A stretch of 64,000 bases of DNA from contig NZ_CP069338.1 in assembly GCF_016859125.1 (NCBI RefSeq), positions 6,263,501-6,327,500 of the forward strand, given 5' to 3'. Below are positions 2,689 through 7,456 of the stretch, in pieces. The position numbers were made by a program, and so were the translations under genes. The notes beneath the pieces are model-generated. The model was given only the letters and a program-made list of their open reading frames with translations, was not told the origin of the DNA and made no database searches. This stretch comes from Archangium violaceum (GTDB taxonomy: Bacteria > Myxococcota > Myxococcia > Myxococcales > Myxococcaceae). The stretch's first letter is position 1. Each line of letters opens with the position of its first letter.

Positions 2689-3504
2689 TCAGTTCCCGCC
2701 CGCGCTCGAGCTGTGGGCGGGAGGCGACGGCTCCGCGATGCCCGTGGGCTGCTTGTCCATCTCCTCCACCGGGTAGCCGTTCGCGGCCTCGATGTAACGC
2801 GGCGGCTTCACCTTGCGGCGGTCCCTCGCGCTCAGGCCCTCGGGCGCTACCAGGGTGGGCTCGCCCCCCTGGGTGCCGGACTGGACGATGTGGCCATCAC
2901 AGAAGAGCCACTCGGTCCGGCCATCGGCGAACTTGCGCGCGTAGTACAGGTCCGTGTTGCCCACCTCGGGCTCCTTCGCGCACCACGTCTGGCGCGCCGT
3001 CTTCTCCCGCTGGGGCACCCCCTCCTCCCACTTGCGCTGGGCCTCCCTCAAGGCGGACAGCTGGGCGCCCTCCGTCATCCGCGCCCGCGACTGCTCCAGC
3101 AGCTCCGTCCCCTTCTGCGCCAGCTCCGAGAGTGTCTTGGACTTCGCGAAGTCGCACTTGCGCACCGCGCCGAGGTTGGTCTGGTACACGTCCAGCACCT
3201 TGCCCAGCGAGCCCTCCGCCTCCTTCAGTGTCTCCAGGGCCCGGCCATGGTCCACCGACTGAGGGTTCTTCACCTGCTCCGTGGAGGACAGGAAGTCCGT
3301 CAGCAGCTTGTTCACCGAACCCAGCTCCTTCTCCACGGTGCGGGGTTCCGCATTACAGATGTTGGCCCCGGCCTTCGCATAGTCGCGGTACTCCGCGCGC
3401 GACAGCCCCAGGTTGTACTTCACCGGCACCACCTTCGTGGCACACCCACCCAGCGCCAGACCCAGGCCTCCGATCATCCACAGCTTCCGGCTCTTGAAAT
3501 TCAT
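2689..3504 (-). CDS. Uncharacterised lipoprotein with helical core
   Basis: A 271-residue predicted lipoprotein. The N-terminus has a basic MNFKSRK head, a hydrophobic stretch and the lipobox LALGGC, so residue Cys21 should be lipidated. The middle (about residues 45-170) is rich in Glu, Lys, Leu and Ala and looks alpha-helical. There are four further cysteines (NAEP, KCDF, TWCAKE and FCDGH contexts). The C-terminus is proline and serine rich. I do not recognise the family. It is convergent with the WGR gene and divergent from the VWA operon across an AT-rich spacer. Confidence 0.75.
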   Translation of the reverse strand: MNFKSRKLWMIGGLGLALGGCATKVVPVKYNLGLSRAEYRDYAKAGANICNAEPRTVEKELGSVNKLLTDFLSSTEQVKNPQSVDHGRALETLKEAEGSLGKVLDVYQTNLGAVRKCDFAKSKTLSELAQKGTELLEQSRARMTEGAQLSALREAQRKWEEGVPQREKTARQTWCAKEPEVGNTDLYYARKFADGRTEWLFCDGHIVQSGTQGGEPTLVAPEGLSARDRRKVKPPRYIEAANGYPVEEMDKQPTGIAEPSPPAHSSSAGGN

Positions 3505-3722: not shown

Positions 3723-5423
3723 ATGTGGAAGCTGCGGTGGGGAGTGCTCGCGGTGGTGATGTTGCTGGCCGCCTGCAAGGAATCCAACCCGGGGACATCC
3801 AGTGCACCGGGTGCCACGCGCAAGCCCCAGGTGGCGGGCGGTGGACGGCCGGTGGTGCTGACGGTGGCCTACGGCAGCGAGAAGAAGAGCTGGTTCGAGG
3901 AGCAGGCGCGGGCCTTCGAGCGGAGCGGGGCGAAGACGAAGTCGGGGCGGTCCATCCGGGTGGAGGGCCGGGCGATGGGCTCGGGCGAGGCGGTGCAGGA
4001 CATCGTCTCCGGCAAGCTCCGGGCGCACGTCTACAGCCCGGCCTCCAGCGCGTACCTGCCGCTGCTCAACAGCGCGTGGATGACGTCCAAGGGGAAGACG
4101 ACGCCGGTGGTGGGCGAGGGTGAGCCGCTGCTGCTCTCGCCCATCGTCATCGCCATGTGGAAGCCCATGGCGGAGGCGCTGGGCTGGCCGGGCAAGCCCA
4201 TTGGCTGGGCGGACCTGATGAAGGTGGCGGCGGACAAGCGGGGCTGGGGCGCGTACGGGCACCCCGAGTGGGGCCGCTTCAAGCTGGGCCACACCCACCC
4301 GGACTCCTCCAACTCGGGCCTGCTGTCGGTGCTGGCCGAGGCCTACGCGGGCTCGGGCAAGACGCGCGGGCTGACGGTGGCGGACGTGGAGCACAAGAAG
4401 ACGAAGGCGCTGCTGGCGGAGATCGAGGGCACGGTGGTGCACTACGGCAAGTCCACCGGCTTCTTCTCGGACAAGATGCTGCAGCGCGGCCCGGGCTACC
4501 TGTCGGCGGCGGTGCTGTACGAGAACCTGGTCATCGAGTCCTACGGCAAGCAGACGGACGCGCCGTTCCCGCTGGTGTCCATCTACCCGGTGGAGGGCAC
4601 CTTCTGGTCGGATCATCCGTACGCGGTGCTGGACGCGGACTGGGTGGGCGCCGAGGAGCGCGAGGCGGCGCAGGCCTTCATGGCCTTCCTCAAGGCGCGG
4701 CCGGCGCAGGAGCGCGCGCTGGCGCTGGGCTTCCGTCCGGCGGACCCCGCGGTGGCCATCGCGGCGCCGGTGGACGCGGCGCACGGCGCGGATCCCAAGC
4801 AGCCGCAGACGCTGCTGGAGGTGCCCGGCGCGGACGTGCTGGAGAAGCTGCTGGCCGTGTGGCGCGAGACGAAGAAGCCCACGGACATCACCTTCGTCTT
4901 CGACAAGTCCGGCAGCATGTCGGGCCGCCCGCTGGCCGAGGCCAAGGTGGGGGCGAAGCGCTTCCTGGAGTCGCTGTCGGACCGGGACGAGGTGACGCTC
5001 GTCCTCTTCGACAACAACGTGTACCCGCCCCTGGGCCCCATGACGCTCGGCAAGGGCCGCGCGGAGCTGCTCGGCCGCGTCGACAACATCATCGCCGAGG
5101 GGGGCACGGCCCTCTATTCGGCCACCCAGACCGCCTACAAGCTCGCCCGGGAGCGGGCGCAGAAGGAGCCGGGGAAGATCCACGCCGTGGTGGTGATGAC
5201 GGACGGCAAGGACGAGCACAGCACCATCACGCTGGGGGACCTGGAGCAGGGCCTGAACGCCTCGAGCGAGGAGAACCCGGTGCGCATCTTCACCATCGCC
5301 TACGGCAATGGCGCCGAGGGCAAGGTGCTCGAGCGCATCGCCGAGGCGGCGAAGGGCTCCAGCGCGAAGGGCGGCGTGGAGGACATCGTCCAGGTGTACC
5401 GGGACATGGCGTCCTTCTTCTGA
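3723..5423 (+). CDS. Lipoprotein with substrate-binding domain fused to VWA domain
   Basis: A 566-residue lipoprotein. The ATG at 3723 is chosen over one at 3690 because a GAGGGGAGG ribosome site lies just upstream and the protein then begins with a clean signal peptide ending in lipobox MLLAAC. Residues about 35-365 form a periplasmic substrate-binding domain (SBP_bac_11 type): YGSEKKSWFEEQ, WGRFKLGHTHPDSSNSGLL, TFWSDHPYAVLDADW. Residues about 385-566 are a VWA domain with a complete metal site (DKSGSMS, then MTDGKDEHS). Its binding domain is paralogous to the protein at 6260. First gene of a three-gene operon. Ligand and partner are unknown; similar VWA/SBP proteins occur near TelA-like genes, but no telA is seen here. 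Confidence 0.85.
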   Translation: MWKLRWGVLAVVMLLAACKESNPGTSSAPGATRKPQVAGGGRPVVLTVAYGSEKKSWFEEQARAFERSGAKTKSGRSIRVEGRAMGSGEAVQDIVSGKLRAHVYSPASSAYLPLLNSAWMTSKGKTTPVVGEGEPLLLSPIVIAMWKPMAEALGWPGKPIGWADLMKVAADKRGWGAYGHPEWGRFKLGHTHPDSSNSGLLSVLAEAYAGSGKTRGLTVADVEHKKTKALLAEIEGTVVHYGKSTGFFSDKMLQRGPGYLSAAVLYENLVIESYGKQTDAPFPLVSIYPVEGTFWSDHPYAVLDADWVGAEEREAAQAFMAFLKARPAQERALALGFRPADPAVAIAAPVDAAHGADPKQPQTLLEVPGADVLEKLLAVWRETKKPTDITFVFDKSGSMSGRPLAEAKVGAKRFLESLSDRDEVTLVLFDNNVYPPLGPMTLGKGRAELLGRVDNIIAEGGTALYSATQTAYKLARERAQKEPGKIHAVVVMTDGKDEHSTITLGDLEQGLNASSEENPVRIFTIAYGNGAEGKVLERIAEAAKGSSAKGGVEDIVQVYRDMASFF

Positions 5424-5456
5424 GGCGCGGGATGACGGGACAGGGGAGGAGCGGAC

Positions 5457-6263
5457 ATGGCCGAGCGGGGTGAGTCGACGTTGGTGGGCTACCTTCCGAA
5501 GGTGCTGGCGCGCTCGGCGGGGAGCACGCTCAACCTGGTGGTGGCGGGCACGTCGGCGCTGCTCGCGGCGGCCCTGCGCTCCTGGGCCGTGGCCGCGCTG
5601 GGCGCGGTGGCCTACGTCGCGCTGGTGGCCTGGGACGTGGTGTCGCCCGGCTTCTGGAAGGAGACCCTCTCCGGCCGCTCCGAGGAGGAGCGCAAGCTGC
5701 CCGCCCCGGGCCGGCTGGAGGATCAGCGGGTGCGCGACTCGGTGCGGGCCATCCATCAGGCGCGCGAGGAGCTGTCGCGCACGCTGGCGGACGCACCGCG
5801 CGGAGTGCTGTCGCACCTGGAGCTGGCCCTGTCGTCGCTGAGCGAGCTGGAGGGGCGCGCGGTTCGGCTGGTGCGGCGAGGCGAGGAGCTCTCCCGCTAC
5901 CTGCGCACGGTGGACATGGGCGCGGTGCGCGAGCAGCTGCGCCTGTTGGAAGAGCAGACCCGGGCGGCGCGGGACGCGGAGGCCCGGGAGCAGTACCAGA
6001 GCGCGCACAGGGCTCGCGAGGAGCACCTGGCGGCGCTGCTGGACATCCACGCGGCGCACGAGCGGGTGTTGGCCAACCTCTCGCGCATCGCGGCCACCTT
6101 CCAGGGACTCCCCGCCAAGGTGATGCGCCTGCGCGCTCTGGACGCACAGGCCACGGACAGCATGTACGGGGACCTCAACCAGGAGCTCGGCCGCATGAAT
6201 GGTGAGATCCAGGCCTTCGAGGACACCCTGCAATCGCTCAAGGAGGTTCGAGTCTCATCATGA
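5457..6263 (+). CDS. Membrane protein with long coiled-coil tail
   Basis: A 268-residue protein of unknown family. Residues about 20-65 contain two adjacent hydrophobic segments (LNLVVAGTSALLAAAL and AVAALGAVAYVALVAW). The remaining 200 residues are highly charged and helical, with leucine-rich heptads suggesting a long coiled coil. No catalytic motif is visible. It starts 33 bp after the VWA lipoprotein, and its TGA overlaps the ATG of the next gene by the ATGA arrangement, so the three genes are almost certainly co-translated. It probably anchors or scaffolds the two binding lipoprotein-like proteins at the inner membrane (inference). Confidence 0.7.
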   Translation: MAERGESTLVGYLPKVLARSAGSTLNLVVAGTSALLAAALRSWAVAALGAVAYVALVAWDVVSPGFWKETLSGRSEEERKLPAPGRLEDQRVRDSVRAIHQAREELSRTLADAPRGVLSHLELALSSLSELEGRAVRLVRRGEELSRYLRTVDMGAVREQLRLLEEQTRAARDAEAREQYQSAHRAREEHLAALLDIHAAHERVLANLSRIAATFQGLPAKVMRLRALDAQATDSMYGDLNQELGRMNGEIQAFEDTLQSLKEVRVSS

Positions 6264-7456
6264 AGCCCAAGGTCTTCATCATCCTGGGGTTCCTCGTCGC
6301 GGTCGGCGCGGTGCTCTTCATCACGTCCTCGAACGGGGACAAGGCGCGGCAGCAGGGCGGGACGGAGACCGCTCCCTCACAGACCCGGACCTCCGGGCCG
6401 GTGACGGAGATCTCCTTCCTCTACAGCACGGAGAAGAAGGAGTGGGTGGAGGCCGCGGTGGCGGGCTTCCAGCAGGAGAACCCGTCCATCCGCGTGAAGC
6501 TGGTGGGCAAGGGCTCGCTGGAGTCGGCCCAGGCCATGTTGGATGGCAAGGAGAAGCCCACGGTGTGGAGCCCGGCCGACAGCGCCGTGCTGCGCATGCT
6601 GGAGTCGGACTGGTCGACGGACCCGCAGCGTGGGCAGCTCTTCGCCACCAGCGGTGACGACGCGCCGCAGCCGCTGGTGATCACGCCGCTGGTGTTCGTG
6701 GTGTGGGAGGACCGGGCGGAGGTGCTGCAGAAGATCTCCGGCGGCGTGGTGTCGTGGAAGGCCATCCACAAGGCGGTGGCGAGCGATCAGGGCTGGCCGG
6801 CCATTGGAGGAAGGTCGGAGTGGGGCTTCGTGAAGCTGGGCCATACGGACCCCACGCGCTCCAACTCGGGCCTGCAGGCGATGCTGCTGGCCACGCTGGA
6901 GTTCTACGGCAAGCGCTCGGGCCTGACGGTGGGAGACCTGCTCAAGCCCGAGTACCAGACGTGGGTGAAGGAGCTGGAGAAGGGCGTCACCCGCTTCGAG
7001 ACCTCCACGGGCACCTTCATGACGGACATGGTGCGCTTCGGCCCGTCGAAGTACGACGTGGCGGTCGTCTACGAGAACCTGGCGATTTCCCAGCTCGCCA
7101 ACGCACAGGGCCGATGGGGCAATCTGAAGGTGTACTACCCGGCGCTCACCCTGTGGAGCGACCACCCGGCGGCGCTGGTGCAGGCCGACTGGGTGACGCC
7201 GGAGCAGAAGGACGCGGCGCGCAAATTCCTCACGTATCTACGCAGCCGCCCGGTGCAGGAGCGCGCGCTGGCGTTCGGCTTCCGGCCGGCGGATCCCTCG
7301 GTGCCGCTCAAGACGCAGGACGCGGCCAACCCCTTCACGCGGCTCGCGCCACAGGGCATCCAGGTGGACGTGCCGCCCGTGGCCGAGGTGCCCGAGGGGC
7401 CGGTGGTCCGCAATCTGCTGACGATGTGGTCACGCGTGGTGGGCACCGCGCGCTGA
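6260..7456 (+). CDS. Membrane-anchored substrate-binding protein (SBP_bac_11 type)
   Basis: A 398-residue protein with one N-terminal hydrophobic anchor (VFIILGFLVAVGAVLFI) followed by a periplasmic binding domain. It is a clear paralogue of the first domain of the protein at 3723. Matching pairs are YSTEKKEW/YGSEKKSW, KLGHTDPTRSNSGL/KLGHTHPDSSNSGL, LWSDHPAALVQADWV/FWSDHPYAVLDADWV, and QERALAFGFRPADP/QERALALGFRPADP. It lacks the VWA domain. There is no lipobox cysteine, unlike its paralogue. No ABC permease or ATPase lies nearby, so classical uptake is unlikely; a sensory or quality-control role is possible (inference). Its last 27 bp overlap the convergent DUF2809 gene. Confidence 0.82.
   Translation: MKPKVFIILGFLVAVGAVLFITSSNGDKARQQGGTETAPSQTRTSGPVTEISFLYSTEKKEWVEAAVAGFQQENPSIRVKLVGKGSLESAQAMLDGKEKPTVWSPADSAVLRMLESDWSTDPQRGQLFATSGDDAPQPLVITPLVFVVWEDRAEVLQKISGGVVSWKAIHKAVASDQGWPAIGGRSEWGFVKLGHTDPTRSNSGLQAMLLATLEFYGKRSGLTVGDLLKPEYQTWVKELEKGVTRFETSTGTFMTDMVRFGPSKYDVAVVYENLAISQLANAQGRWGNLKVYYPALTLWSDHPAALVQADWVTPEQKDAARKFLTYLRSRPVQERALAFGFRPADPSVPLKTQDAANPFTRLAPQGIQVDVPPVAEVPEGPVVRNLLTMWSRVVGTAR

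What the first reader, a model, noticed from the sequence alone, without database searches (positions are those of the whole stretch)
3723..7456. VWA/substrate-binding operon without a transporter
Two paralogous binding domains, one fused to an intact VWA metal site and lipid-anchored, the other membrane-anchored, enclose a coiled-coil membrane protein. There is no permease or ATPase. This suggests a periplasmic complex or sensor rather than uptake.
Basis: partly seen in the sequence, partly recalled or inferred. Interest (0 to 1): 0.55.

Follow-up and report, generated by a model that had tools for sequence, protein, structure and literature searches.

The report
Envelope sensor cassette without transporter
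Three neighbouring bacterial genes look like parts of a nutrient importer but probably form a cell-envelope sensing complex, because relatives in several phyla keep the same gene set, almost never with transporter genes, and sometimes beside known membrane-stress genes.

Summary
Window 3723-7456 holds three tightly packed genes: a lipoprotein with a sulfate-type binding domain fused to a VWA domain with an intact metal site (VS), a two-helix membrane anchor with a long coiled coil (CC), and a membrane-anchored paralogue of the binding domain (SB). No permease or transporter ATPase was found in the 64-kb window. A genome scan gave 80 loci in Myxococcota, Chloroflexota, Verrucomicrobia, Acidobacteria and Planctomycetota. 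VS and SB stand together in 57 of 80, and 48 of those 57 also carry a CC-type gene. Of 90 loci examined, one has an ABC importer next to the cassette, with its own binding protein.

In other lineages a cytoplasmic envelope-stress gene sits inside the operon: TelA in Variovorax, Sphaerotilus and Nonomuraea; PspA plus an AAA ATPase in five Verrucomicrobia/Acidobacteria-type loci. Charge distribution puts the CC coil in the cytoplasm. I read the cassette as a trans-envelope ligand sensor coupled to membrane-stress scaffolds (confidence about 0.5). Against an obligate complex, most Myxococcus and Corallococcus genomes keep SB alone; Myxococcota have no TelA, and the host's PspA lies about 200 kb away. 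Function is inferred only from gene neighbourhood, conservation and predicted fold.

The parts
3723..5423 (+). VS: lipoprotein with a sulfate-type substrate-binding domain fused to a VWA domain (GTG 3690 is an alternative start)
   Evidence: Pfam SBP_bac_11 68 bits and VWA 67.5 bits; AF2 pLDDT 90, SBP part Z 27.9 to 5um2, VWA part Z 23.9 to 4fx5
3774..3776 (+). lipobox cysteine codon (C29, counted from GTG 3690; LAAC)
   Evidence: column at least 90% conserved in 45 VS; stricter pattern 41 of 60
3858..4736 (+). substrate-binding domain of VS
   Evidence: SBP_bac_11 residues 57-349
4884..5351 (+). VWA domain with intact MIDAS (D405, S407, S409, T473, D505)
   Evidence: invariant in 45 of 45 aligned VS
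5457..6263 (+). CC: N-terminal membrane hairpin followed by a long coiled coil, predicted cytoplasmic
   Evidence: AF2 pLDDT 89, all-helical; hydropathy and flank charges in homologues
5526..5642 (+). two membrane helices of CC (model helices 24-40 and 43-62)
6260..7456 (+). SB: signal-anchor plus stand-alone substrate-binding domain, paralogue of the VS domain
   Evidence: Pfam SBP_bac_11 72 bits; 39% identity to the VS domain
2689..3504 (-). LP: divergent lipoprotein gene, candidate fourth component in Myxococcaceae
   Evidence: lies next to and divergent from the first cassette gene in all 18 loci where it was found, whether that gene is VS or SB

Best explanation
VS, CC and SB form a trans-envelope sensing complex rather than an importer. 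Shown: two sulfate-type binding domains (one lipid-anchored and fused to a VWA domain with an intact metal site, the other membrane-anchored) plus a membrane-hairpin coiled-coil protein; this gene set recurs across phyla, almost always without a transporter. Inferred: the binding domains bind a small, possibly anionic, envelope ligand; the VWA domain makes metal-dependent contacts that change on binding; the state passes through the membrane anchors of SB and CC to the coil in the cytoplasm; the coil recruits or regulates a peripheral membrane scaffold. In other lineages that scaffold is TelA, or PspA with an AAA ATPase, encoded in the same operon. In this host no scaffold is encoded nearby; its single PspA, about 206 kb away, is a guess.
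For: Gene set across 80 genome-scan loci: 57 have VS and SB, and 48 of those 57 also have CC or its Verrucomicrobial counterpart; 69 of 70 loci with two or more core genes have them all on one strand. Importer next to the cassette: 1 of 90 loci (L075), with its own SBP. TelA inside the operon in three independent lineages: Variovorax L117, Sphaerotilus L121, Nonomuraea L119; 5 of 8 plasmid records with a VS relative of that type have TelA within 2 kb, three of them near-identical Variovorax records. PspA, coiled coil and AAA inside the operon in 5 of 80 loci (L089, L103, L107, L109, L113). CC and the Verrucomicrobial protein: profile match probability 92.5% over 179 columns spanning the hairpin and coil. 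Charge distribution places the coil inside. Sulfate-type fold with contact motifs retained; the S. aureus signalling SBP 6lkg is also close (Z 25.3). TelA and PSP genes are tied to cell-wall or membrane stress in Listeria (PMC11765107 and PMC12791056, passages read).
Against: The parts come apart. In 195 Myxococcota genomes, 60 have VS and/or SB matches; 42 of these have SB only, mostly in two genera, and three relatives have VS only. SB alone stays intact under purifying selection (dN/dS 0.15-0.35 in four SB-only pairs), so SB does something without VS and CC. Three of six genomes of the host genus lack the cassette. No TelA or XpaC match exceeds the cut-off in 195 Myxococcota, and no PspA is in the operon here, so the cytoplasmic effector in this host is unidentified. 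CC shows no profile similarity to PspA (0.8%) or TelA (3.4%), and its fold search is uninformative. No interaction, ligand or phenotype has been measured.
Confidence: 0.5

Rival explanations
1. Orphan uptake: VS and SB are binding proteins that deliver an oxyanion or phosphorylated solute to an ABC permease encoded elsewhere, and the VWA and coil parts are accessory.
For: The fold is closest to sulfate, hexose-phosphate and ferric binding proteins. Orphan binding proteins exist (recalled). A Pst-type importer follows the cassette in L075 and lies about 6.5 kb away in Thiodictyon L115.
Against: 89 of 90 loci have no importer next to the cassette. In the host genome two other SBP_bac_11 proteins do sit beside permease genes, by my reading of the translations. 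Covalent fusion to VWA and linkage to TelA or PspA fit uptake poorly.
Confidence: 0.2
2. Independent modules: SB is a stand-alone envelope protein, and VS-CC is a separate adhesion or assembly unit that merely sits beside it.
For: SB-only, VS-only and VS-CC-without-adjacent-SB genomes exist; SB-only copies are under purifying selection.
Against: VS and SB stand together in 57 of 80 loci across several phyla, in more than one gene order; CC and SB overlap by 4 bp here.
Confidence: 0.2
3. Metal-handling or chelatase-like unit: the VWA domain acts as in cobalt or magnesium chelatase, and the binding domains supply a metal or its oxyanion.
For: VWA hits include chelatase subunits, all far below cut-off. 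TelA is named for toxic-anion resistance.
Against: No chelatase AAA or cobalamin genes were seen among the Pfam-annotated neighbours in the window; the VWA fold is nearest to secreted and inter-alpha-inhibitor VWA domains.
Confidence: 0.07

Closest known systems
PspA / Snf7-TM / AAA+ operons with PBPB-OmpA and ABC genes (Ravi et al. 2024, mSystems, PMC11237479; section 18 and passages read)
   Same: Binding proteins, a membrane coiled-coil protein, PspA and an AAA ATPase in one operon, as in relatives L089, L103, L107, L109, L113
   Different: Their longer operons include an ABC ATPase, a permease and OmpA; vWA and TelA are not mentioned in the main text. The window has neither PspA nor AAA
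TelA/XpaC (toxic anion resistance) operons
   Same: TelA sits between SB and VS in Variovorax, Sphaerotilus and Nonomuraea, with a 2TM helical protein downstream
   Different: No TelA or XpaC in the window's genome or above cut-off in 195 Myxococcota
NCBI-named 'substrate-binding and VWA domain-containing protein'
   Same: Same VS domain order; the name is already used in public annotation
   Different: The name covers one protein, not the three-gene cassette
Vibrio pAM7 TelA operon (L136)
   Same: vWA lipoprotein, binding proteins, 2TM coil protein and TelA in one run of genes
   Different: Binding proteins are of other families, VWA is a separate protein, and ABC ATPase and permease are present
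S. aureus signalling SBP of PDB 6lkg ('two-component system protein mediate signal transduction'; organism and the name HptA are recalled)
   Same: A binding protein of similar fold used for sensing (Z 25.3)
   Different: Works with a histidine kinase (recalled); none was seen next to the cassette here

Membership tests
ABC importer with substrate-binding protein | Type II SBP fold | tested here: met
   Z 27.9 to 5um2 and 27.0 to 1sbp; SBP_bac_11 above cut-off
ABC importer with substrate-binding protein | Co-encoded permease and ATPase | tested here: not met
   None in the window; next to the cassette in 1 of 90 loci
TelA/Ter-type system | TelA in the operon | tested here: not met
   Absent from window and genome, though present in three other lineages
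TelA/Ter-type system | XpaC partner | tested here: not met
   PF10112 absent from the host genome and not above cut-off in 195 Myxococcota; CC gave no PF10112 match
PSP / ESCRT-III-like AAA operon | PspA co-encoded | tested here: not met
   None in the window; the only PspA is about 206 kb away; met in 5 of 80 relatives
PSP / ESCRT-III-like AAA operon | Coiled-coil member belongs to the PspA/Snf7 superfamily | tested here: inconclusive
   Profile probability to PspA 0.8%; fold search uninformative; Snf7 not tested by profile
VWA domain with functional MIDAS | DxSxS, T and D metal ligands | tested here: met
   Invariant in 45 of 45 aligned VS; metal binding itself not testable here
SBP-type sensor with two-component system | Adjacent histidine kinase | tested here: inconclusive
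   None among the Pfam-annotated neighbours; no dedicated kinase search was run

The most novel reading that the evidence does not exclude
An ancient cross-phylum envelope-sensing cassette of two paralogous binding domains, a metal-site VWA and a membrane-hairpin coil, whose cytoplasmic effector is exchangeable: TelA in some lineages, PspA plus an AAA ATPase in others. That would make TelA and the bacterial ESCRT-III relative PspA functional equivalents downstream of one ligand sensor.
Probability: 0.3. Interest if true: 0.7.

Novelty: new variant of a known kind. Interest (0 to 1): 0.5.

Why it matters
How PspA and TelA learn of damage outside the cytoplasm is not settled (my reading). A conserved receptor-like cassette in the same operons would give both a candidate input, and makes it testable in genetically tractable myxobacteria. 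It also warns that many proteins annotated as extracellular solute-binding may not serve transport.

Tried and rejected
ABC transporter lost by rearrangement: rejected as the general case, because 89 of 90 loci have no importer next to the cassette. Lone ATPase matches (L080 next to VS, and L039, L056, L059, L105, L110), a lone permease (L078) and a distant importer on the opposite strand (L098) were judged unrelated by position.

CC as a PspA or TelA homologue: no support. CC as XpaC: no Pfam match, and no XpaC set could be gathered for a profile test because only one weak match existed in 195 genomes. CC by fold: Foldseek gave no match below E 0.1, and gamma-tubulin-complex and BAR-type rows at Z 12 or less are within the helical-bundle noise the tool warns of. 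PspA and ESCRT-III chains were not among the 50 rows shown, which excludes nothing.

The TelA-type 2TM protein (A9) is not shown to be homologous to CC (probability 7.7%); one member, from Deinococcus, scored E 3e-4 against the CC profile in a 20-sequence set, in which Miltoncostaea (1e-25) and Streptomyces (6e-9) scored better and the Variovorax and Sphaerotilus proteins did not score.

Promoter and terminator scan: nothing above chance. PADLOC: no meaningful match. Literature: searches listed no paper that I could see describing this cassette; the 2012 Ter comparative-genomics paper, which may mention related operons, is not held.

Rows dropped: the genome scan kept the best 80 of 111 loci. 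Loci cut by contig ends (for example L072, L077, L102, L105, L106, L108, L110) were counted as found. L028 and L036 are two copies of one region.
Full report
What is there. The window lies in a 12.68-Mb single-contig myxobacterial genome (G000:C1:6263501-6327500; Myxococcota inferred from the named relatives). Three genes run in one direction: VS 3723-5423, CC 5457-6263 and SB 6260-7456, with a 33-bp gap and then a 4-bp overlap. Pfam gives SBP_bac_11 plus VWA for VS, SBP_bac_11 for SB, and nothing above cut-off for CC. The two binding domains are 39% identical. MIDAS residues D405, S407, S409, T473 and D505 are invariant in 45 VS proteins and the lipobox cysteine is at least 90% conserved, although a stricter lipobox pattern matched only 41 of 60 VS. 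SB carries an N-terminal hydrophobic segment without a lipobox in most of the set; 12 of 79 SB, from loci whose titles lie outside the Myxococcota, look like lipoproteins.

Surroundings. Annotated neighbours are a GNAT acetyltransferase, a WGR protein, a divergent lipoprotein (LP), a DUF2809/VanZ-like gene, a cytochrome c, an aldo/keto reductase and a weak zinc-carboxypeptidase match. Permease and ATPase profiles that I built from four permeases and three ATPases found nothing in the six-frame ORFs of the whole window. As an internal contrast, two of the other SBP_bac_11 proteins of this genome lie beside permease genes by my reading of the translations; a third was not resolved.

Relatives. 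One scan of genome contigs with the binding-domain alignment kept the best 80 of 111 loci. Six-frame profile searches gave these gene sets: VS and SB together in 57 of 80, and of those 48 also with CC or its Verrucomicrobial counterpart c9. The usual order is VS-CC-SB in Myxococcota, SB-VS-CC in Chloroflexota, and VS-SB-c9 in Verrucomicrobia and Acidobacteria. In 69 of 70 loci with at least two core genes, all are on one strand. Of the 23 loci without VS, 17 have SB alone. CC and c9 match by profile comparison with 92.5% probability over 179 columns.

Effector genes in the operon. In five loci (L089, L103, L107, L109, L113) the order is VS, SB, PspA, c9, AAA ATPase. For L113 the PspA scores 37.1 bits against a cut-off of 33.9, and the ATPase 85.9 bits. 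A search of plasmid records led to Variovorax (SB-TelA-VS-2TM protein), Sphaerotilus (same) and Nonomuraea (same by six-frame search), with TelA confirmed by Pfam in L117 and L119 and annotated in L121. The SB of these three is recognised only weakly by the SB profile (E 5e-4, 1.7e-5 and 1.5e-5). Deinococcus has VS and a 2TM protein without TelA; the gene before its VS resembles those SB proteins by eye but did not reach the profile threshold. Miltoncostaea and Streptomyces have VS followed by a protein that the CC profile recognises. By co-ordinates, TelA lies within 2 kb of VS in 5 of 17 TelA records and 5 of 8 VS records; three of the five are near-identical Variovorax records. Other TelA records have other neighbours: Arthrobacter none of these parts, and two Curtobacterium records TerD genes.

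Transporters. Thiodictyon has a pst operon about 6.5 kb upstream and L098 an importer further off on the other strand. Vibrio pAM7 (L136) has a parallel run of non-orthologous parts: ABC ATPase, OmpA/NMT1-like, vWA lipoprotein, SBP/OmpA, 2TM coil protein, TelA, SBP, permease. This resembles the PBPB-OmpA/ABC operons with PspA, Snf7-TM and AAA described in PMC11237479 (section 18).

Structure. The VS model (pLDDT 90) matches sulfate-binding proteins (5um2, Z 27.9; 1sbp, Z 27.0), a thiamin-binding protein, the hexose-phosphate protein AfuA, and the signalling SBP 6lkg (Z 25.3); its VWA part matches 4fx5 (Z 23.9). In the HMMER alignment to 1sbp, the conserved STG and YEN motifs fall on the segments that I recall as carrying sulfate contacts (A173, W192); this contact list is recalled, not computed. 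The CC model (pLDDT 89) is all-helical and its fold search is uninformative. In CC homologues the N-terminal flank and the 25 residues after the second membrane helix are generally rich in Lys and Arg, while the loop between the helices is short and almost uncharged, which suggests that both ends lie inside. The simple hydropathy rule found two helices in only part of the set, so the topology is a prediction.

Loss pattern. Of 195 Myxococcota genomes, 60 match the VS profile at E 1e-60 or better. By my count of its rows, 17 have full-length VS and one a VS cut before the VWA domain; 42 have SB only, mostly in two genera. In three genomes of another genus only VS was found at the locus, and one more genome has VS and CC with SB on another contig. 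Three of the six genomes of the host genus lack the cassette. The genera are unnamed in that search; Myxococcus and Corallococcus are named among the SB-only loci. SB-only copies show dN/dS 0.15-0.35 in four pairs, and VS, CC and SB of the host genus 0.14-0.45. In all 18 loci where LP was found it lies next to, and divergent from, the first cassette gene, whether VS or SB; two of the 18 are the same region.

Interpretation. The best reading is a trans-envelope sensing complex coupled to membrane-stress scaffolds, by analogy with the operons that contain TelA or PspA plus AAA. The shown steps are the gene set, the domains, the metal site and the linkage. The inferred steps are ligand, signalling, coil position and effector. 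TelA and PSP genes are linked to envelope-stress tolerance in Listeria (PMC11765107, PMC12791056; passages read). The strongest contrary results are the separability of the parts in myxobacteria and the absence of TelA or a linked PspA in this host. VS is already named in public annotation, and the PspA/AAA operon type is published; I saw no description of the cassette or of the TelA/PspA exchange in the open-access search listings, while the 2012 Ter paper could not be read.

Noticed in passing
window 2689-3504 (-): A Myxococcaceae lipoprotein gene keeps its divergent position next to the cassette even where VS and CC are lost and SB becomes the first gene (18 of 18 loci where it was found).
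   Followed up: partly
L117 818-3213 and 12571-17416: The Variovorax SB-TelA-VS locus lies near a flotillin-domain gene and a Wadjet-type (JetA) defence gene cluster.
   Followed up: no
L140 8952-9830 and 2749-6440: A Pseudanabaena plasmid carries two tandem SBP-VWA relatives with a prohibitin-family gene about 2.5 kb downstream.
   Followed up: no
L127 5980-8485 and L038 6692-9197: A Myxococcus-type VS has lost its VWA domain and CC, and the remaining VS part now lies directly before SB.
   Followed up: no
L094 3468-5620 and L100 9073-11732: VS-SB pairs in Acidobacteria-type contigs are followed by a histidine-specific methyltransferase and, in L094, an FGE-sulfatase-like gene (same cluster c76 in L100), a pairing that recalls ergothioneine synthesis (recalled).
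   Followed up: no
L075 11813-16410: A Pst-type importer with its own binding protein follows SB-VS-CC in a Chloroflexota contig; with Thiodictyon L115 this is the second phosphate-type importer near the cassette.
   Followed up: partly
L083 2191-9053; L076; L095: Some Chloroflexota carry duplicated VS or SB genes in the same cluster.
   Followed up: no
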